Positions 2,363 to 63,185 of a stretch of DNA of 64,000 nucleotides are shown here, piece by piece; position 1 is the stretch's first letter, and each line of letters opens with the position of its first letter. A model generated the notes under the pieces. That model searched no databases. It had not been told where the DNA came from and worked only from the letters and a program-made list of their open reading frames with translations. The stretch is from Amphibalanus amphitrite (Eukaryota > Arthropoda > Thecostraca > Balanomorpha > Balanidae). Position numbers and translations under genes: made by a program. The stretch covers positions 1 to 64,000 of the forward strand of contig NW_024882890.1 of the NCBI RefSeq assembly GCF_019059575.1, written 5' to 3'.

Positions 2363-4264
2363 GGGGCATTCCACGACAGATCGTACCACGCCCGTCACCC
2401 TCATCTCTCAGATTTTAATGAAAATCCGTCCTAGGGGTAATCATAGGCCCCAAAGACGCCTGACAAAATATCAGACTTCTCAGATCAAAACTTTTTGAGT
2501 TATATTGCATTACATTTTTTTAACTTCGGTTTGTAACGGTGAGTTTGATGGCCTATAACTCAAGAACGGGTTAAGCTACCAACAAACAGTAAGCAACACT
2601 AAGCTTGCGATGAATCAAAAATTAATATTACCATTAAAAAATTCCAAAAGAAAAATTTTAATTGTTGAGCGAAAACCTTAATCTTTTTTCATTTGCCTCT
2701 AATGACCTTTGGGACCAAAATTTTTCACATTTTTATTTTTTTCAAAATAAACTTCATGTCATTGCAAATTGGCATGCAAAAAATTAGAAAGGTGTTCTTT
2801 CTATAAAATCCCTATTTTCCCGCAAACAAAATGGGTTTCGGAGGGGTTGATACGACCCCAGCACGCCGTTTCGCTTCTAATAGAGCTAAAGCCTCGCGGA
2901 AAAAACGAGCGTGTTTGCGGTAACAAGTCGCAGCGATTGGTACCCGATTTTAAGGTCTCAGGTTAACCGGTAGCGTCTGGGGTCAGGTCAAGTGACTGAA
3001 GTTACGGGTTCGAGTTTAGTAAATAACTTCGCAAAAAATGGCCGAAGAGCCGCGATTTTGGCATCATTGTGTTCGCCTAGCTCAGGTGGATCGAATGGTA
3101 TACTTTTTGCTAGGGTGAGGTCAACTTAAGTAGTTGACCTCGGGTCAAGGTCAGGTCAGAGCCCCTAAGGTCACGGAGCTAGGCAAAGGGTATCATATGG
3201 CATATCATTCGATTCGGAAGGTCTTCCCGAGTCCATTGGTGGCTTTCCCGACTCTCTAGCTCCATTTTATCGGGAGTTATTGACGAAAAACTCGTACGAC
3301 CCTAGTGACGTCATCAATGACGTCACGCAAGGTTACCAAAGCAAAAGAAAAGCATTGGACTTTGCAAGAATTGCATGAAATCATGATACCACGTACGTGG
3401 GATAGTTTTAGATCATTCTCGGCGCCAAAATAACAGTTTTTTATATTTCCCAATTGACTTATAACAGTGATGTCACGTGACCGATCTGACCTCACGTAAC
3501 CTTAAAAATTCCCAGATATACAAGTTGTGAGACCTCTGGAGGACACCATGTATGCGTCCTGTAACTTTCATCTCGGACAGCTATGGTCGTTGGCGTCCAA
3601 AACAATGTCAGAACCAAATAGCCTTTTTCACCCTCGCGCTTATAGGAAAGAGGGTTGGATGAACCCTCTTTTCACTTTTTTTCAGATGACTCAGACTTCA
3701 ATTGAAATTTCAGTAACCCGTGATGTCACTAGGCAGCTTTACCACGCCATTTGTAAGCTCCCCTCCCGAAATCACTATTCGAAACCGTTATCGTGACGTA
3801 AAATAAATACATTTATAGAAAGAACACTTTCCTAATTTTTTGCATATTTGTTAACAATGAGCCAAATATTTTTTCAATGAAATAAAGATTCAAAAAAATT
3901 TGGTCCCAAAGTCCAAAAAATACAAATGAAAGAAAACTCGATATGTCATATATCAAAAATAGCGCATTTTTCGAAATTTCAAAAATACATATTAATCTCT
4001 GTTTTAGTGCAAGTTTAATGTTATATAACATTTGGCATTTGAATAATCCGTCTTAGAGTTACAGTCCGCCAAACTTGGCGCTGCAAAGCAAGATCCAAAA
4101 AATGTTATACACCATAACTCAAAAAATACTTATCTGATAAGCCTGAAATTGTTACAGGTAGATTCAGAGCCCCTGATTACCCCTGAGACCAATTCTCGTC
4201 AAATTCCGAGAGATGAGGGTGTCAAATTGAAAAAAAAGTGGTACGATCTATCGTGGAATGCCCC
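2363..4264. mobile_element. Foldback DNA transposon with ~450-bp imperfect inverted arms
   Basis: The two ends are inverted copies starting GGGGCATTCCACGA. Similarity continues inward through about 2363-2810 and 3803-4264; for example the inner arm segment AAAAAATTAG...AAAGTGTTCTTTCTATAAA at 2776-2806 is matched in reverse near 3808-3840. A 4-bp direct repeat ACCT flanks the element (2359-2362 and 4265-4268). The loop (about 2811-3802) shares sequence with the 7330-8223 element, including a stretch around GCGGAAAAAACGAGCGTG, and holds GGTCA motifs and two perfect CREs. No transposase ORF is present, so it is non-autonomous. Superfamily is not assigned; 4-bp duplications occur in several groups. 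The arms have diverged, so it is not very recent. Confidence 0.8.
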
Positions 4265-7115: not shown

Positions 7116-7329
7116 CATGATTTGGTTTTATTTCATTAAAAGCACCCACGGCTGGCTGTCCATGCAGTTTGCACGGCTGTGGGCGACTGCGGGGCGGCTA
7201 GGTTGTAAAAAATTGCAGCCGCGCAGAACTCTAATGAGAAGCCTGTTCTTCCTTTTACATGTTCACCCGACAACAGCAACAGTGCCCCTTAGCTTGTTAT
7301 GCTCTTCTCCTGAATAAGAAGAGACTTAA

Positions 7330-8223
7330 CCCTCGCATGTGTGCGGCGTTTTCCAGCTTCTAATGTGTAGGGGGGGGGGTCGGTTGGACCCCCCCTTGCC
7401 GTTTGGCCCCTGATCGAGCTAGAGCTTCGCGGAAAAAACGAGCGTGTTGCCCGTGACGAGAGGAAGCCGATGATACCCAATTTTAAGGTCCTAGATCATT
7501 GGTTGACCTTCCAGGTCAGGTCAATGACCCAAAGTCGGGAAAATCGGGACCTATTAGAAAGTCGTAAAGTGTGGCTGCTTAGGGGTTTTTCGGGGTGCTG
7601 ATCACGAATATCGTGTTAGTTTTGATCACAGATGATGTCTTTAAGCATTTAGACCAGGTCGGGTCAGGTCAGGTCAGGTCAATCAGTAGGCGTCGTGACG
7701 GGTATTCGTAGTACGTGTCAACCGCCTCTGACAGCTTCGTAACATGTTACGAAGGCACCAAAACTACTTCGTAAATGTTCAAATGGTTGCCAAATTCGAA
7801 TTCAGCTCCAAAAACTAGCCTATAAACATGTAAAACTCGAAAAAGTGAACCGAGGTCACCCGAGGTCACCAAAGGTCAATGACCTGACCTGACCTTCAGG
7901 TGACCTTGACACCCACCCTAATGCATGGGAGCAACATCAAATCACATGTTTGAACGTTTGAAACCACGAAAAGCTTGCAAACGCGCGGCTAATGCGAGCC
8001 GACGTACGCCGAATCGCGATTCCGGCCAAACATGGTCTCGGAAAAGAGGTCACAGGTCAAAGGTCATTTGGGTCAGGGTCATGAAATTTTCAGGGTAGGT
8101 GTCAAATTGATCAATGCGAGGGTACTGAAAGTTTCGTCGCGATCGGCGGCTTTTTACGCGAGTTATTCGCGAAAAACCATGGGGGGGGGGTCCATCCGAC
8201 CCCCCCCCCTACACATGCGAGGG
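7330..8223 (+). mobile_element. piggyBac-like non-autonomous element (family A)
   Basis: Flanked by TTAA on both sides (7326-7329, 8224-8227), starting CCCTCGCATGTGT and ending with its inverse. TTAA targets and CCCT/AGGG ends are the known piggyBac signature. The right end runs straight from the terminal motif into a C-tract/G-tract hairpin. At the left end the ATGTGTAG motif is repeated after a spacer of about 20 bases before the G-tract hairpin. The interior has GGTCA arrays (about 7658-7682, 7849-7905). No transposase ORF. Confidence 0.88.
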
Positions 8224-8227
8224 TTAA

Positions 8228-19672: not shown

Positions 19673-20607
19673 CCCTAGAACGCCTAGGGGGGTTGTATCA
19701 ACCCCCCCCCTGAGGTTTTTTCGAAGTGCACGCTAAACGGCTTGTCGTAGCGGGCTGAAATTTTCAATATCCTCTGGGGCAGCCTTTGCGCATCTTTTGC
19801 CGAAAAAAATTGATCGGGTCATGTCAGGTCACGGAGTTATGACGTCATAAGAGGTACAGCCTCCGGCCGACAGTTACCAAACGTGTGCGCCGAATTCCTA
19901 GGTTTTCTGCCGGTGATACCCACATTGTTTGATGGATCATGATGAAACTTCCCATGCATGTTGGGGCAAGCAGTGGCTATCGTGTGGTGCAAGAAAATTG
20001 ACCGGGTCAGGTCAGGTCACGGAGCTATGACGTCACAAGAGGAACAGCGTCCGGTACTATTTTTGAAAAGCGCCCGAACCACTATTTTGCTAATTCTTGT
20101 CACCTCAATGGGAATATGCAGCAATATTAGCTTCTATAGGGAGCAAATGGACCTCCCAAATCCAAAAATACAATCAGATTTCAAAAATTTAAATTTTGAT
20201 TTTTCGAATTTCTGCCGCCGACTGTGACCTTGCCGACTTCCGGCGCTCCCAACGCGCCATTTTTAGAGCTAGGGAAGCGAAATACATACCAAACGATAGA
20301 GAATTGATCAAGGAACACGATAGTGAAGGTTTCAAGTCGATATCTCCCACCGTTTTGCCGCAATCGCCGCGGAAAGTTGAAAAAGTTTGATTTTTTCGGA
20401 AAATTTGACCTTTGACCGGTCATAAGTAGGTCAAATGTTGACCTAGGACCAAAAAATATACCACCAATCGCGAGATCTCGTTGAGAGCAATCCGTTGTTT
20501 TTTTCCGCTAAGCTCTACGACCTTCCGTTTCGAAACGCCAGGGGGGTCGTAACAACCCCCCCCCCCTGGTCGTTCGTGTTATGAGAAATGGCCTGGTCGT
20601 GCGAGGG
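19673..20607 (+). mobile_element. piggyBac-like non-autonomous element (family B, copy 1)
   Basis: TTAA flanks both ends (19669-19672, 20608-20611). Starts CCCTAGAACG and ends GCGAGGG. The left end goes directly into a G-tract/C-tract hairpin (about 19686-19711). The right end has an extra CGACCAGG copy and spacer before its hairpin. Inside is a duplicated module of about 188 bp, each with GGTCA repeats followed by a perfect TGACGTCA (19840-19847 and 20028-20035). The copy at 62235-63181 is the same family in opposite orientation; my hand alignment of about 390 bases suggests mid-90s percent identity. The ORFs at 19958-20227 and in the other copy are non-coding sequence shared by descent. Confidence 0.92.
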
Positions 20608-43628: not shown

Positions 43629-44513
43629 CCCTATTAGTGGCAGGGGGGTTGTTTATATCCACCCCTCAGGTTTTTCGGGAATATCTCCGAAACCGCTGAA
43701 GCTACGATGCTGAAATTTTCTGACTTTTCCTAAAACTAAATTGGGCACATTCCCTGAAAATTTCAAGTTCATAACTTTACCAGGGGCGGCTCCAGAGCAC
43801 TGGGAATTGGGGGGTCCTATTCGTGAAGCGAGTCATTTGGGCGAAGATCACGATGCTGCACCAGTTTTACGAACAGTGAATGAAAGGTACCATGTGATAA
43901 CATATACAGTTATTGTGCATCCTCTTTTGACACGTTTTTGCTATAATAGGCGGATCCAGGCGTCCAAAAAGGGGGGTTATGTTTTACCTCCCAACATAGG
44001 TGCCCTGACACCGCCTATGCATGACCAATACAATTGTAGTCGTTCTCTCATAAGAAAATTGTAACATAACAAGACCATTACCACCCTTTTTAGAAACAGT
44101 ACCAACAAAAACCTTATTTACTATACTTTTTTGTGTACCCCCAATCTCAATGATCTGTATCCGCCTATGATTTTTGAAAATGCATATTTTTAGGATCCAT
44201 GTGAATTCCTGGTTCATTCTCTATCGATCGGCAAAAGTTGCGTTAAGATTGGTTCAGAAACCTGGCCGTGATAAACAGTCTAAAATGTGTCTGCAATTTG
44301 CCCGTTTTTACCCCCCTCTACCCCCCCCCCCCCCCTATTGACATTTTTTAATTTTTTATTTTTTTAGAAATGTAGATCACGTTAAGCGAAATCGAATGCC
44401 GTTTGAATTTTGAAAATCGGCCCATTAGATCTCGAGATATCAAGGGAGGTCGTAAACAGCCCCCCCCCCCCTGCCACTAATTAGGGGTAGCCAGGAGCCT
44501 GCCACTAATAGGG
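43629..44513 (+). mobile_element. piggyBac-like non-autonomous element (family D) with nested MITE sequence
   Basis: TTAA on both sides (43625-43628, 44514-44517). Both ends carry CCCTATTAGTGGCAGG. The left end runs into a G-tract/C-tract hairpin at once. At the right end TAGTGGCAGG is repeated after a spacer of about 20 bases before the C tract (about 44459-44471). The interior contains hAT-like MITE ends. A second C tract of about 14 lies at about 44324-44336. No transposase ORF. Confidence 0.88.
43943..44170 (+). mobile_element. Probable hAT-type MITE nested in family D
   Basis: Left end ATAATAGGCGGATCCAGG, right end inverted as TATCCGCCTATGA. Flanking octamers TTTTTGCT (43935-43942) and TTTTTGAA (44171-44178) agree in 6 of 8 bases. 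Further ends of the same type (CAGGGGCGGCTCCAG at 43781, CACCGCCTATG to about 44020) suggest more than one nested copy, so these borders are provisional. Confidence 0.5.
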
Positions 44514-49580: not shown

Positions 49581-49598
49581 TAAACCATCACGTGAGTT

Positions 49599-51482
49599 GT
49601 GAGGGGAATTATGCCGCTGCATAAGGACGAGTGGGTGCGCATTGGGGCGCCTGATGCAGTTCTGGACTGGATTATGAATGGTGTGCCGGTGCCTGTGCGT
49701 GACATTCCAGAGCCCCGTGTCTTTGAAAATCCCTGTTTTAATGAACCAGAGAAAAAGTTTTTGGAAACTGAGCTGATGGCGCTAGAAAAGAGAGGTGTTA
49801 TAGAAAAAGTAGCTGACGTGCCGCATTGTGTCTCCCCTTTGAAGGTTGTTCCAAAGAAAAATTCCAAATATCGCCTCATTTGTGACTTGAGATATGTGAA
49901 TTCTCACTGTGATGTGCCACATTTTTCGTCAGAAGGTGTTTCTGTCCTGCCAGAGGTTATGAGAGGTGGTGAGCTGGCGGTCACTGTAGATTTAAAGGAC
50001 GGATTTTATCATTTCCCTGTCCGTGAAGAGTTCAGAACGTATCTGGGTTTCCAGTATGGTGGATGCTGGTATGTGTGGTGTTTTCTACCATTTGGTTTGG
50101 TGGCTAGCCCGTACTATTTCCACAAATGTATTCGGGTGGTCATAGAGTATATGAGAGGGACCGAACGCCTGTCGGTCATGGCCTACGTAGATGATTTTTT
50201 ATTGACGTCAACGAAGAATAGAATGGCCAGTGACGTGAAAATATTTTTAGATACTTTAGCTTCATTAGGATTGTGTGTCAACTGGGAGAAGTCGTGTTTG
50301 GAGCCGTCAAATGTTGTGTCTTATTTGGGTTTCGATGTGCACTGTGCGTCCGAGGGTGAATTGCCGTTCATTACTGTGCCTAAATGCAAAGTGTCGAAGC
50401 TGAAGCAGGATATAGGTAGGATGTTAAAGCGGCCCACTGTGTCGGCGCGTCTGCTGGCTCGCATCGCGGGTAGGTGTATCAGTATGATGGCAGCGGTGTT
50501 CCCGGCCAAGCTGAAGTTGCGGAACATTTACCGTCTGTTGAATTCTAGGATGTCTTGGGACGAGGCAATGCCGTGGTCGCCCGAGGCCAGAGAGGATCTG
50601 GCGTGGTGGCTTACATCGCTGGACGGGTGGAACGGCCGGCTGCTGGTGCCGCCGGCCAGCTGCGACTTGCAGCTCTCCACGGACGCGTCCGAGACTGGCT
50701 GGGGAGCGACACTTTCCACCCCGGTCGCTCAAACCGCCTCGGGTTTCTGGCGGCCAGAGGTGAGCGCAGAAACGTCCAATTTTCGCGAGTTACTAGCTGT
50801 TTATTTTGCCTTACTGTCATTTTGTTCTACGCTTCGTGGCAAAACCGTCGAGATATTGTCCGATAATATCACGGTAGTCGCGCTCATTAACAAGCTTGGG
50901 TCAGCTGATCGTCGCCTGGACGCCATCGCTCAGAATATTTGGGAGTTTGCTTTTGAGCATCAGGTCATGCTGGTTGCGCACCACATTGCAGGATATTTAA
51001 ATGTAGACCCCGATGAGCTGTCACGTATTCCGCTGCGTCACGAGTGGACACTCCATCCGGCTGTGTTCCAGCAGTTGGAGCGCATGTTCGGCCCGCACAC
51101 GATCGACCGGTTCGCCTCCCTGTCTACGGCGTTGCTACCGGTCTACAACAGCCGCTTCAGGGACCCCGGTACCGCTGGTGTGGACGCTCTGGGTCAGAAC
51201 GATTGGCAACAGCACAACAACTTCATAAACCCGCCCTTCCGGCTGGTCGCACGTGTGCTGGACGCGGTGCAGGCGCAGCGTGCCGAGGCCACGCTGATTG
51301 CCCCGATGTGGCCAGGCCAGCCATGGATGGAGCGGCTGCGGCGGCTCAGCGTCTGCCCGCCGCTGCGGCTGCCGCCTGTGACGCAGGCCTGTATTCCACT
51401 GCTACCGCACCAGCAGATAGAGCCGCACCGCAACAGACGGTGGACTCTGTTCGCCTGGCGGATCTCTGGAGAGCCCGGTTAG
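49599..51482 (+). CDS. Reverse transcriptase-RNase H-methyltransferase-like region of the DIRS-like element
   Basis: Open frame of 627 codons. The reverse transcriptase core is recognisable by VDLKDGFYHFPV, LPFGLVASPYYFHK and the catalytic YVDD within AYVDDFLLT. RNase H follows with LSTDASETGWGA, FRELLAVYFALLSF, LSDNITVVALINKLG and HHIAGYLNVDPDELSR. The last third (DRFASLSTALLPVYNSRF to NPPFRLVARVL) matches the methyltransferase-like domain typical of DIRS elements. It would copy the element RNA into DNA if expressed. Part of a fossil element, so no host role is proposed. Confidence 0.85.
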   Translation: MRGIMPLHKDEWVRIGAPDAVLDWIMNGVPVPVRDIPEPRVFENPCFNEPEKKFLETELMALEKRGVIEKVADVPHCVSPLKVVPKKNSKYRLICDLRYVNSHCDVPHFSSEGVSVLPEVMRGGELAVTVDLKDGFYHFPVREEFRTYLGFQYGGCWYVWCFLPFGLVASPYYFHKCIRVVIEYMRGTERLSVMAYVDDFLLTSTKNRMASDVKIFLDTLASLGLCVNWEKSCLEPSNVVSYLGFDVHCASEGELPFITVPKCKVSKLKQDIGRMLKRPTVSARLLARIAGRCISMMAAVFPAKLKLRNIYRLLNSRMSWDEAMPWSPEAREDLAWWLTSLDGWNGRLLVPPASCDLQLSTDASETGWGATLSTPVAQTASGFWRPEVSAETSNFRELLAVYFALLSFCSTLRGKTVEILSDNITVVALINKLGSADRRLDAIAQNIWEFAFEHQVMLVAHHIAGYLNVDPDELSRIPLRHEWTLHPAVFQQLERMFGPHTIDRFASLSTALLPVYNSRFRDPGTAGVDALGQNDWQQHNNFINPPFRLVARVLDAVQAQRAEATLIAPMWPGQPWMERLRRLSVCPPLRLPPVTQACIPLLPHQQIEPHRNRRWTLFAWRISGEPG

Positions 51483-53054: not shown

Positions 53055-55868
53055 TCAACTTCCATACAAGCTCTTGGACCATGCTTTCCTTATCAAGGAA
53101 GTGTAGGCCAAGTCACTAAAGAATAGTGACAACACAATCCTGTTGGAAGATCGTGCAAGACGTGACACAAAGTTCCACACTGATCTACGATACAGCGCGT
53201 CAAAGCCAGGTAAACACTCCTGAACAAACATATTAGACGCACTGCAAAACCTATCGTAGCCAAGAAACATCCTGGCAGCATTATTAAAACACACCTTGAA
53301 TTTCGTTAGAACAGATGCATGAAAGGAGTGCCAAAGGGTCATACAACTGACATTTGAACAGTAGGTAGTATACAGGTACTTCTTAACGGAGTATGAACAC
53401 ATTGCAAATTTTCGACTCAAAGAATTCGCACGACAGCACAAATTACGGTATTGTTGATGAATTTCCATGTCATCAGCCCTGGTGCTTTTGTTAGTAAGCT
53501 GAAATCCAAGATACTTGTACGAGTCAACAAACTTCAATTCACTACCATCAAGAGTGACAGACGGTACGTACAGTTCTCGGAAATTCCTAGGAAGAATTGT
53601 CATACACACGGTCTTTTTCGTATTGAACTTAATATCATGACCATCTGCATACGTAACACAAAGATCCAGCATTTTCTGTAGTCCATACGTCGAAGGAGAA
53701 AGAAGGACCATATCGTCTGCATAATACAGGTGATTTATGCTACCGTGAAAGTGGCACCCAAAACCACATTGTGCGATAAGCATTGATAAATCATCAGTAT
53801 ACACATTGAACAAAAAAGGAGATAAAATGCCCCCTGTCTTACGCCATTCGACACTGTAAATCCCTCTGATAGCTCATCGCCCCATAACACATGAAATTGT
53901 TGTGATTTGTACCACGAACAGAGCAATTTTACCAGATGAATATCCATTTTCCTTTCTAACAGCTTCGCAAAAAGTGTCCAGTGGTTTACACGATCAAATG
54001 CCTTGCGGGCGTCAAGAAAACAAAGAAATACAGGACTTCTGTTTCGCAGAAAGTAATCAGTGACCTCCTTTAGAGCATATATGGCCAAGTCAGTCGAATG
54101 GTTCTCCTTAAAGCCAAACTGGTGATGGCCTGTAGAAAGCTGGTCAGAACATCGGTTTAAAATAGCCCTCTCTAATATCTTAGAGCCCACACTGGCAATA
54201 GCAATTGGACGATAATTATCCTTTTCAGACAGTTTTCCGGCTTTGTCTTTAACAATAGGTGTTAGCACAACTTTTGCAAAAGAATGCGGTATGCACTATG
54301 CAGCCATGTCTCACCATCATAGACAAACACAAAGACAAGTGTGTGGCACATGGGACCCCAGCATGTTTAAAATGTTCAGCACTGAGGCCATCATTTCCAT
54401 TAGAGCGACCAGATGCAAGCTCGTGAATGGATTTCAGAACCTCAGGGACTGAGAAACACTTGAAAGTACTTGTTTCCTCCTGAAACTGCCCTAAGACATA
54501 CTCTTTACGATCCGTCTTATCCACGCTATTCAAAATGTCTGAAAAATGATCCTTCCACATGTCAGCAATATTCTTACATCCCGAAACACCATCAATCGAA
54601 TGGGACAGTGGAGGGCTCCTATTCAATTTCTTTACCTCCTTCCAGAAAGCAGACAAGCTGTAAGGATTTTGAACGAGTTTATCTGCTAGTGACTTAGCCC
54701 TCATTTCTTTCTCATGCCGAAGACAGAACCGTAAAGCATACTTAAATCGTGACCGCGCCAGACGTAATTGCAGGTAAATGTACCCATCCCTGGGCTTGCC
54801 AATTAAAGCCCACAACGAATAAATATCACAGAGTAAGTCATGGCTGTCTTTAACATATTCGTTCCATCCAGGAATATTACGTTTCTTCTTATATCCTAGG
54901 CACTTCGATATTGTGAGCTCAGATGCTTTTTGTAAGCAGCTAATTATTTCATCATAGTAGACATTAATTAAATCAAAGTGTTCCTTTGTATCTGAACACT
55001 CATCACAGTGCAAGAGATCGGTAGGAACGGTAAGCTGGGCCAGACCGTCATTCACAGCAGAACTGTAAGTTACGATATCCTCGGGACTAAGCGAATCCCA
55101 GTCTACGATCCACCTCATCCTCTGTTCAGTGTCAGAAACATGACACATTCTCATGCAACTGAGTATCGATATTGACCACTATGGGGAAGTGATCAGAACT
55201 GAGAATAGATTGATCAATGGTAACGCTATCAACAAGAGCATAAAACCCCCTCGTGCAAACGATATGGTCCAACCAAGTCTCCACCTCATGGCCATCATTA
55301 ATGTGTGTCACAGTGTTTGAGGGAAGGTACTGAACATCCGCTATCACCAAGCGAGAATCATTACAAAACGACTCAAGCTCTTTACCGAACTCAGTTCCTT
55401 TGACCACATCTGCATTAAAGTCACCAAGCACACATACGTATTGGGAATCAAATTCCTCGATGATCGTTTTGAGCTTACCTAGGTAGAAAACATAACTGTC
55501 GAAATTGAGGTTTGTGTTGTAAGGCAAGTATACACCAACAAAAAGAATTTTTACACCACTAAACGAATATTCCAAACCGACTATCCGGTCATCCTCATAA
55601 CATACTGGCTTCACTGAGAGGCCAAAGAGTTACGCCATAATACAGCTACACCACCGTACGGTCTACCTCTGATTAAGCCCGCAGATGGGTCAATCGACGA
55701 AATACCAAAAGAAGTGAAATCACCGTGAATATTGCAGAGAGTAGCCAGATCCGACGGAAAGAGCCAATGCTCTTGAAGAAAAACAATATCCGAACTTTCA
55801 CATAAACTATGAATCCCACCAAAATTACGTTTAGCCGATTTACAGTTATATGAACTTATCTTCAACAT
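53055..55868 (-). pseudogene. LINE ORF2: endonuclease-reverse transcriptase, four frameshifts
   Basis: Probable start MLKISSYNCKS at 55868. Endonuclease motifs in order: SYNC, QEHW, GRPYGGVAVLWR, VLGDFNAD, LDHIVCT and SSDHFPIV. Reverse transcriptase motifs: DNYRPIAIASV, FGFKENHSTDLA, FLDARKAFDRVNH (catalytic Asp), NGVRQG, YYADDMVLL (catalytic YADD) and YKYLGF. The protein would nick target DNA and prime reverse transcription there. The reading frame shifts near 55620, 55145, 54290-54303 (a 7-base near-tandem duplication, TGCATAG then TGCATAC on the minus strand) and 53830 (one G short in a G run). The last open piece ends at 53055 with FSDLAYTSLIRKAWSKSL. Confidence 0.88.
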
Positions 55869-62230: not shown

Positions 62231-62234
62231 ATAA

Positions 62235-63181
62235 CCCTCGCCCGTAAACGGCGATCTGCCACCTTCGCCCATGCAGGGGGGGGGGGGGTTGGTGCGACCC
62301 CCGCCCTTGGCGTTTGAAAACGGAGCGTCGTAGAGCTTAGCGCAAAAGACCAACGGATTGCTCTCGCCGAGATCTCGCGATTGGTGGTATATTTTTTGGT
62401 CCTAGGTCAACATTTGACCTACTTTTGACCGGTCAAAGGTCAAATTTTCGGAAAAATAGACTTTTTCAAATTTTCCGCGGCGATTGCGGCAAAACGGTGG
62501 GAGATATCGACTTGAAACTTTCACTATCGTGTTTCTTGATCAATTCTCTATCGTTTGGTATGTATTTCGTTTCCCTAGCTCTAAAAATGGCGCGTTGGGA
62601 GGGCCGGAAGTCGGCAAGGTCACAGTCGGCGGCAGAAATTCGAAAAATCAAAATTTAAATTTTTGAAGTCTGATTGTATTTTTGGATTTGGGATGGCCAT
62701 TGGCTCCCTATAGAAGCTAATATTGCTGCATATTCCCATTGAGGTGACAAGAATTAGCAAAATAGTGGTTCGGGCGCTTTTCAAAAATAGTACCGGACGC
62801 TGTTCCTCTTGTGACGTCATAGCTCCGTGACCTGACCTGACCCGGTCAAGTTTCTTATACCATATGATAGCCAATACTTGCCCCAACATGCATGGGAAGT
62901 TTCATCACGATCCATCAACCGATGTCCGTACCACCGGCAGGAAACCTCGGGCGTTGGCACTCAGTTTGTGAAAATCCGGCCGGAGGCTGTTCCCTTTGTG
63001 ACGTCATAACTCCGTGACCTGACATGACCCGGTCAAATTTTTTTTATCAAAAGATGCGCAAGGTTTGCCCCATAAGGTACCCAAAATTTGGCGGCGCTGC
63101 GCGCCGCCGTTTTTGCACTATTTCCGAAAAACCTCAGGGGGGGGGGTTGCACCAACCCCCCCCCCTACATGGGCGAGGGAT
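62235..63181 (-). mobile_element. piggyBac-like non-autonomous element (family B, copy 2)
   Basis: Inverted copy of 19673-20607, same body sequence. Ends CCCTCGCCC and GGGCGAGGG, with G-tract/C-tract hairpins inside each (about 62275-62305 and 63138-63166). The + strand left end has the repeated TCGCCC motif and spacer; the right end is compact. The flanking direct repeat is ATAA (62231-62234, 63182-63185) instead of TTAA. CREs at 62812-62819 and 62999-63006 are spaced 187 bases, as in copy 1. No transposase. Confidence 0.9.
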
Positions 63182-63185
63182 AAAT

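What the first reader, a model, noticed from the sequence alone, without database searches (positions are those of the whole stretch)
7330..8223. Four piggyBac-like MITE insertions share asymmetric ends and a G-tract/C-tract hairpin just inside each end
Seen directly: elements at 7330-8223, 19673-20607, 43629-44513 and 62235-63181 are all 885-947 bp, start CCCT and end AGGG. At one end the terminal motif runs straight into a G tract, a short TTGG/TTGTA-type loop and a C tract. At the other end the terminal motif is repeated after a spacer of about 20 bases before the hairpin. Known piggyBac ends are likewise asymmetric (short spacer on one side, long on the other). The conserved G-tract hairpin in elements with unrelated bodies is, to my knowledge, unusual and suggests a constrained role in transposase binding or strand transfer, or G-quadruplex formation.
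Basis: partly seen in the sequence, partly recalled or inferred. Interest (0 to 1): 0.75.

Follow-up and report, generated by a model that had tools for sequence, protein, structure and literature searches.

The report
Jumping-gene ends with poly-G docking sites
Four short pieces of mobile DNA in this animal genome carry, just inside each end, an inverted repeat with G-run and C-run arms that is most likely the docking site for the enzyme that moves them, placed as in the well-studied piggyBac transposon but with an unusual sequence.

Summary
All four elements are piggyBac-type non-autonomous transposons (885-945 bp, CCCT tips). Three are flanked by TTAA; 62235-63179 is flanked by ATAA. Each has one short end (14 nt, then G tract, core, C tract) and one long end (40-42 nt). 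Two of the bodies (19673-20607 and 62235-63179) are related, inverted, 89% identical.

The 807.55-Mb assembly holds 9,609 short-end and 9,772 long-end matches on the forward strand, against 160 at intermediate spacing. In capped lists for contig C1, 29 of 29 adjacent inward end pairs are long+short.

The 'hairpin' sits where T. ni piggyBac has the palindrome bound by the transposase's cysteine-rich domain (CRD) dimer. A transposase gene on contig C44 has an E2-type long end, a piggyBac core and a CRD with the T. ni ligand order; its short end was not read.

Arms covary strongly at short ends, weakly at long ends, where the distal half-site is near-fixed. This leans towards half-site recognition by protein, but does not exclude a hairpin. 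G-quadruplex is unlikely.

Verdict: new variant of a known kind. Binding is inferred, not shown.

The parts
7330..8223 (+). Element E1, non-autonomous piggyBac; flanked by TTAA at 7326-7329 and 8224-8227
   Evidence: 40 scored copies (this one among them) at 98-100% identity, of 3,508 first-look candidates
7330..7369 (+). E1 long tip (40 nt): CCCT tip, spacer, repeated tip motif ATGTGTA
   Evidence: 40 nt in 30 of 30 copies held
7370..7395 (.). E1 long-end palindrome, core TCGGTTGGA; predicted CRD-dimer site
8181..8209 (.). E1 short-end palindrome (core TCGGATGGA read from the tip); predicted CRD-dimer site
8210..8223 (-). E1 short tip, 14 nt
   Evidence: 14 nt in 29 of 30 copies held
19673..20607 (+). 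Element E2; flanked by TTAA on both sides; short end on the left
   Evidence: 40 scored copies (this one among them) at 98-100%, of 2,073 candidates
19687..19710 (.). E2 short-end palindrome, core TTGTATCAA, after a 14-nt tip (19673-19686)
20541..20566 (.). E2 long-end palindrome (core TTGTTACGA from the tip), before a 41-nt tip (20567-20607)
   Evidence: same kind of end on the C44 transposase element
43629..44513 (+). Element E3; flanked by TTAA on both sides; short end on the left
   Evidence: related long ends in 3 of 37 readable rows on contig C1
43643..43665 (.). E3 short-end G/C-tract repeat (imperfect; core 13 nt in this copy)
44444..44471 (.). E3 long-end G/C-tract repeat (imperfect), before a 42-nt tip (44472-44513)
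   Evidence: by eye
62235..63179 (+). Element E4; flanked by ATAA (62231-62234 and 63180-63183) instead of TTAA; long end on the left; body 89% identical to E2 inverted
   Evidence: 40 scored copies (this one among them) at 98-100%, of 1,482 candidates
62276..62302 (.). E4 long-end palindrome, core TTGGTGCGA, after a 41-nt tip
63137..63165 (.). E4 short-end palindrome (core TTGGTGCAA from the tip), before a 14-nt tip (63166-63179)

Best explanation
The four elements are members of several families of non-autonomous piggyBac transposons. The 'G-tract hairpin' is a subterminal, roughly two-fold-symmetric double-stranded DNA site to which two cysteine-rich domains (CRDs) of a transposase dimer bind. 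At the short end it lies directly behind the tip motif, so that one dimer can hold tip and palindrome together. At the long end the tip motif and palindrome are repeated 26-28 bp further in, which gives a second, inner binding unit, as proposed for T. ni piggyBac LE35/RE63. The transposase pairs one short with one long end, excises, and joins TTAA (sometimes ATAA or other) targets. Shown here: anatomy, abundance, spacing rule, long+short pairing, arm covariation, and a resident piggyBac transposase gene with a CRD of T. ni ligand order and an E2-type long end. Inferred: that this CRD binds the G/C-armed palindrome, the dimer or tetramer assembly, and mobilisation of the families in trans.
For: Position: T. 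ni LE35 has its CRD-bound palindrome at bp 17-33, centred near bp 25 (PMC7351741); here the G tract begins at about bp 15 at short ends and 26-28 bp further in at long ends, against 28 (63 minus 35) in T. ni. Spacing is bimodal genome-wide: 9,609 and 9,772 forward matches against 160 in between. 29 of 29 adjacent inward pairs in the C1 lists are long+short; label shuffles give 14.6 on average, 24 at most. Short-end arms match in 32 of 39 positions over 13 families, shuffled mean 16.8, none of 20,000 shuffles as high. The long-end distal half-site is T 10, C 10, G 9 of 11 while the proximal one varies. One other piggyBac end in the genome (L001) has a clear unrelated palindrome centred at bp 24.5, and two (L080, L087) a weaker one there. 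The C44 element has an E2-type long end (312 bp at 92.6%), E2-like sequence on its 5' side as far as E2 position 86, a PF13843 core closest to T. ni piggyBac (6x67, E 5.9e-63; piggyBat 9c0f 9.7e-29) and a CRD with Cys/His order C5HC2, the order of T. ni, 10 of 28 residues identical over its C-terminal part (E 0.001 for the single comparison). That CRD lies in open frames of 674 aa at C527 and C171.
Against: No binding data. The CRD alone finds nothing in PDB or Pfam, and has 23 residues between its first two Cys pairs where T. ni has 11. The palindrome centre is not at a fixed distance: 25-33 bp in E1 short ends, because tract length varies; a rigid complex would dislike this, though assembly error in homopolymers may contribute. 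The short end of C44 was not read. Of 33 tip-like sites scanned, only 3 have their best palindrome at 24.5; L080 only equals and L087 is below the best of its 60 shuffles, and several CCCATTAATGCC ends have theirs at 61.5. All 11 long-end cores can still fold as hairpins between six-base tracts, so symmetry alone does not separate protein site from hairpin. Autonomous partners of E1 and E3 were not identified.
Confidence: 0.79

Rival explanations
1. The inverted repeats act as extruded hairpins or cruciforms (or as single-strand hairpins at replication) that the transposase or the host reads as structure, not as a double-stranded protein site.
For: Short-end arms covary between families so that the stem is kept (32 of 39). 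With G-T pairs the long ends reach 26 of 33 (shuffled 22.5, p 0.02), and all 11 long-end cores placed between six-base tracts are predicted to fold, F6 and F12 with a one-base bulge and E3 with an internal mismatch (RNA parameters).
Against: Long ends keep a near-fixed distal half-site even where in-register pairing is lost (E3 and F6 1 of 3, F12 0 of 3). The position equals that of the double-stranded CRD site of T. ni piggyBac. G and C tract lengths of one end are not coupled (rho 0.22, 0.05, 0.07, -0.16), which is weak evidence.
Confidence: 0.13
2. The G tracts form G-quadruplexes that help synapsis of the two ends.
For: Runs of 6-16 G at both ends of all 60 copies examined.
Against: The motif of four G runs with loops of 1-7 is absent from 16 of 16 end strands of the four elements and found in 3 of 240 end strands of the 60 copies; the F5 long end has three runs and no motif. 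Core and C tract would not be needed. A quadruplex between two ends is not excluded.
Confidence: 0.04
3. Tract length is passive: slippage expanded a short GGGG...CCCC site in a common ancestor and the families inherited it without any role for length. This concerns the tracts only and is compatible with the best explanation for the core.
For: Tract lengths vary freely within families; the degenerate E1-like relic at 2840-2957 has only G4/C4 around the core TTGATACGA.
Against: No E1 tract among 30 copies is below 6, and among 30 E4 copies only long-end C tracts (minimum 3) fall below 7. Families with different tips keep both arms, but the patterns demanded six on each side.
Confidence: 0.3

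Closest known systems
T. ni piggyBac (LE35/RE63 ends, PMC7351741; passages read)
   Same: CCCT tip, TTAA target, palindrome at about bp 17-33 of the short end, the same unit about 28 bp further in at the long end with the tip motif duplicated; transposase core related (E 5.9e-63); C5HC2 order of CRD ligands
   Different: Palindrome arms are G and C tracts with a family-specific inner half-site, not TGCGT...ACGCA; tract length and so the centre float by several bp; CRD with a longer stretch between its first Cys pairs; many families, about 9,700 ends of each kind on the forward strand
piggyBat of Myotis lucifugus (PMC11707139 and PMC13405395; passages read)
   Same: CRD-bound imperfect palindromes near the tip, asymmetric ends
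   Different: piggyBat palindromes lie only on the left end, three times; its CRD fold differs; the C44 core is much closer to T. ni piggyBac
CMITE families of corals (PMC2872659; passages read)
   Same: TTAA-flanked piggyBac-type MITE families that differ in tips but share inner sequence
   Different: CMITEs are about 100 bp with a conserved 75-base internal region; no G/C-tract palindrome or long/short ends in the passages read

Membership tests
piggyBac superfamily | TTAA target site duplication | tested here: met
   53 of 60 E1 and E4 copies have TTAA on both sides; 4 have another matching tetranucleotide (ATAA twice, ATAT, CTAA), 3 do not match. Window: 3 of 4, E4 has ATAA
piggyBac superfamily | Tips CCC(T) / AGGG | tested here: met
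   the genome patterns required CCCT, so they do not test it
piggyBac superfamily | PF13843 transposase with matching ends in the genome | tested here: inconclusive
   PF13843 matches at 116 places. C44: E2-type long end seen and E2-like 5' side to E2 position 86; the last about 85 bp with the short end not read. None found for E1 and E3
piggyBac, T. ni type | Asymmetric ends: palindrome near bp 25 at one end, about 28 bp further in at the other | tested here: met
   13-15 nt before the G tract in 53 of 57 readable C1 short ends, 39-42 in 35 of 37 long ends; 160 forward matches at intermediate spacing against 9,609 and 9,772
piggyBac, T. ni type | C-terminal cysteine-rich domain with C5HC2 ligand order | tested here: met
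   Order read in L083 and equal to that of T. ni 5lme/6x67; weak similarity in the C-terminal part. Fold and zinc binding not tested; no PDB or Pfam match by itself
piggyBac, T. ni type | CRD dimer binds the subterminal palindrome | not testable with these tools
   inferred from position and symmetry
piggyBac superfamily | Seamless excision | not tested
   no empty sites were compared
MITE (non-autonomous, high copy, no coding capacity) | No transposase gene; many near-identical copies | tested here: met
   no stop-to-stop frame of 120 aa or more lies within the elements; 3,508, 1,482 and 2,073 first-look candidates for E1, E4 and E2, 40 scored each; E3 query not answered. At 885-945 bp they are longer than the usual MITE
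G-quadruplex motif | Four runs of 3 or more G with loops of 1-7 on one strand | tested here: not met
   0 of 16 end strands of the four elements; 3 of 240 end strands in 60 copies

The most novel reading that the evidence does not exclude
A piggyBac lineage has turned its CRD palindrome into a homopolymer-armed, length-tolerant docking site. The transposase accepts a site that slides by several bp from the tip, family identity is written in a three-base inner half-site, the long-end distal half-site is a shared GGGG-TCG, and a strict short/long (about 14/41) rule governs synapsis in many families of one genome.
Probability: 0.3. Interest if true: 0.65.

Novelty: new variant of a known kind. 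Interest (0 to 1): 0.46.

Why it matters
PiggyBac is widely used for gene delivery, and its required end asymmetry is called enigmatic in PMC7351741 (passage). One genome with eleven end families seen in two or more readable copies, many near-identical insertions and a resident transposase is a natural data set: it agrees with a long+short rule in nature, and it offers candidate CRD half-site codes that a gel-shift or transposition assay can test directly.

Tried and rejected
A swap of left and right cores in E1 was an artefact: loci of minus-strand hits are not turned, and the error-tolerant tip pattern matched the wrong end. It disappeared once orientation was handled.

Coupling of G and C tract lengths: none. 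A palindrome at bp 17-33 in every autonomous family: not so: of 33 tip-like sites (duplicates and chance sites included) 3 have their best palindrome at 24.5, clear only in L001; the best palindromes of L005-L008 and L074 lie at 61.5 on one side. Linking C103 and others to the G-tract ends failed: the C103 ends are CCCATTAGTGCCC, and the G-tract end in L075 lies outside that element. Rfam (gathering threshold) and tRNA scans of the window: nothing. CRD against PDB and Pfam: nothing.

My first text said that each end strand has one G run and that pairing is lost at some long ends. On checking several strands have more runs, though no four-run motif in the window, and with G-T pairs or a bulge all 11 long-end cores can still fold. 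I lowered the best explanation from 0.82 to 0.79 and raised the hairpin rival from 0.10 to 0.13 for this.

Literature: searches for piggyBac with barnacle, MITE, G-rich, G-tract, poly-G, palindrome, subterminal and others showed no title or opening of an abstract on G/C-tract piggyBac ends; listings are capped and only open-licence PMC is held.

Not done: the E3 genome search did not complete; E3 copies are known only from 3 rows.

Full report
WHAT IS THERE. The window is contig C1393 of an unnamed 807,550,619-base assembly of 2,644 contigs. From size alone I suspect a barnacle (recalled, not tested). The four elements were read directly. E1 7330-8223, E2 19673-20607 and E3 43629-44513 are flanked by TTAA on both sides. 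All begin CCCT and end AGGG. Each has one end where 14 nt lead straight into a G tract, a core (9 nt in E1, E2 and E4) and a C tract (short end), and one end with 40-42 nt before the G tract (long end), in which the tip motif is repeated. No stop-to-stop frame of 120 aa or more lies inside them. E2 and E4 have 88.7% identical bodies in opposite orientation, so they are sister families; E1 and E3 share only end regions or short pieces with the others.

GENOME-WIDE COPIES. E1, E4 and E2 queries each gave 40 scored copies, the window copy among them, at 98-100% identity and nearly full length, out of 3,508, 1,482 and 2,073 first-look candidates. Thirty loci of E1 and thirty of E4 were held, the best-scoring ones and not a random sample; all 60 were delimited. 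53 of 60 have TTAA on both sides, 4 another matching tetranucleotide (ATAA twice, ATAT, CTAA), 3 do not match. The G tract starts after 40 nt in 30 of 30 E1 long ends, after 41 in 30 of 30 E4 long ends, and after 14 in 59 of 60 short ends (13 in one). The 9-base core is the same in 119 of 120 ends when compared within family and end, whereas tract lengths run from 3 to 16 and the two tracts of one end are uncorrelated (Spearman 0.22, 0.05, 0.07, -0.16; all p above 0.2).

SPACING. The pattern TTAACCCT, 4-34 nt, G6, 4-13 nt, C6 occurs 9,609 times on the forward strand, and with 34-64 nt 9,772 times; read backwards, 0 and 2 times. Reverse-strand counts (31,268 and 28,494) are inflated because one site is listed for several ends of the C tract, so I use forward counts; about twice as many ends in all is my inference. 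A G tract beginning 15-32 nt after CCCT occurs only 160 times on the forward strand, and the one readable row there is an interrupted tract. In the readable rows from contig C1, 53 of 57 short ends have 13-15 nt and 35 of 37 long ends 39-42 nt before the G tract; the others are at 10, 12, 16, 17 and 47.

PAIRING OF ENDS. The lists are capped and cover contig C1. Of the 121 ends in them, 58 form 29 adjacent inward pairs under 1.5 kb, and all 29 are long+short; shuffled labels give 14.6 on average and 24 at most in 10,000. The other 63 ends have no partner in the lists, which demand intact tracts of six. The readable pairs come from nine tip families, so they are not 29 independent events.

WHAT THE 'HAIRPIN' IS. 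In T. ni piggyBac, the CRD dimer binds a palindromic repeat at bp 17-33 of the 35-bp left end, with the minor groove narrowed around bp 25. The right end is 63 bp, and its bp 34-63 nearly repeat left-end bp 7-35 (PMC7351741, passages; left-end sequence). The ends here have the same plan: a palindrome that starts at about bp 15 at the short end, and the same unit 26-28 bp further in at the long end with its tip motif duplicated. Other piggyBac ends of this genome were scanned for palindromes at 33 tip-like sites, many of them duplicates or chance sites. L001 has GTGTCCTCATATGAGGACAC centred at 24.5, above all of its 60 shuffles; L080 has CGTATCATTTATGATACG there, equal to its best shuffle; L087 has TGGACATTTTTGTCCA there, within its shuffled range. 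The CCCATTAGTGCC sites show none there, and the CCCATTAATGCC and CCCATTAACGCC ends of L005-L008 and L074 have theirs at 61.5. So the place is shared with T. ni by some families of unrelated palindrome sequence, not by all.

HALF-SITES OR STEM. I took the commonest core per family and end, with the window elements; minor variants and the single F14 core were dropped. Labels F5-F15 are mine and some rest on one or two copies. Over 13 short-end families the three bases next to the tracts match across the centre in 32 of 39 cases, shuffled mean 16.8, none of 20,000 shuffles as high (arm pairs such as TTG/CAA, TCG/CGA, CGG/CCG, TGG/CCA). Over 11 long ends the score is 22 of 33 (shuffled 18.2, p 0.02). 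There the distal half-site is nearly always TCG after the G tract (T 10, C 10, G 9 of 11), while the proximal one varies. E3, F6 and F12 match at 0 or 1 of 3 positions in register. This is what half-site recognition by two protein domains predicts. Against it: with G-T pairs allowed the long ends reach 26 of 33 (shuffled 22.5, p 0.02), and set between six-base tracts all 11 cores are predicted to fold, two with a bulge and one with a mismatch. So a hairpin is less favoured, not excluded. An earlier count of 17 nine-base cores gave 40 of 51 (shuffled 25.9).

QUADRUPLEX. A four-run G motif is absent from 16 of 16 end strands of the window elements and present in 3 of 240 end strands of the 60 copies.

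THE ENZYME. PF13843 transposases match at 116 places; ends were looked for at 18 of them. The gene on C44 lies in an element with an E2-type long end at its 3' side (312 bp, 92.6%) and E2-like sequence on its 5' side as far as E2 position 86 (97.3% over 297 bp). Its last stretch, with the short end, could not be fetched. The long end thus lies downstream of the transposase gene, as I recall for T. ni piggyBac. E2 positions 399-627 find no match in this C44 copy. The core matches T. ni piggyBac 6x67 at E 5.9e-63 and piggyBat 9c0f at 9.7e-29. The CRD has the ligand order CxxC, CxxC, CxxH, CxxC, as in T. ni, with 10 of 28 residues identical in the C-terminal part and a longer stretch between the first two Cys pairs. 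By itself it finds nothing in PDB or Pfam. It matches at 15 places, some partial, with open frames of 674 aa at C527 and C171 and 590 aa at C1173. In C44 the core and the CRD are in different frames, so that copy looks broken. Few such genes against thousands of candidate short copies suggests mobilisation in trans (inference).

HOW IT LIKELY WORKS. A transposase dimer grips the short-end tip with its catalytic cores and the adjoining G/C-armed palindrome with its two CRDs. The long end offers the tip plus an inner unit for a second dimer, which makes a short+long pair the productive synapse. Binding and assembly are inferred from T. ni piggyBac and piggyBat. Variation of tract length moves the palindrome centre from 25 to 33 bp in E1 short ends. 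Either the linker tolerates this or some of it is homopolymer error in the assembly; the data here cannot tell.

NOVELTY. The kind is known. The G/C-tract form of the site, the near-fixed long-end distal half-site and the abundance were not seen in the listings, which are capped and cover only open-licence PMC. I read passages, not whole papers: PMC7351741, PMC11707139, PMC13405395, PMC8086355, PMC2872659, PMC8917513.

Noticed in passing
window 2840-2957: Degenerate relic 75% identical to an E1 end region (118 bp), with only G4/C4 tracts around the core TTGATACGA; perhaps an older relative of these families.
   Followed up: partly
window 62231-62234 and 63180-63183: E4 sits in ATAA rather than TTAA; among 60 E1/E4 copies 4 have matching non-TTAA flanks (ATAA twice including this one, ATAT, CTAA).
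   Followed up: partly
window 53055-55629, minus strand: Pieces of a LINE-type retrotransposon: two RVT_1 stretches and an endonuclease domain in different frames.
   Followed up: no
window 49596-51482, plus strand: Reverse transcriptase (RVT_1) with a sub-threshold RNase H-like match in a 628-aa frame; class not determined.
   Followed up: no
E2 19803-19866 and 19991-20054; C44 5' side: A repeat of about 64 bp (89% identical) inside E2, with further copies on the 5' side of the C44 transposase gene.
   Followed up: no
[quoted passage not shown] the CRD match follows at 300251.
   Followed up: no
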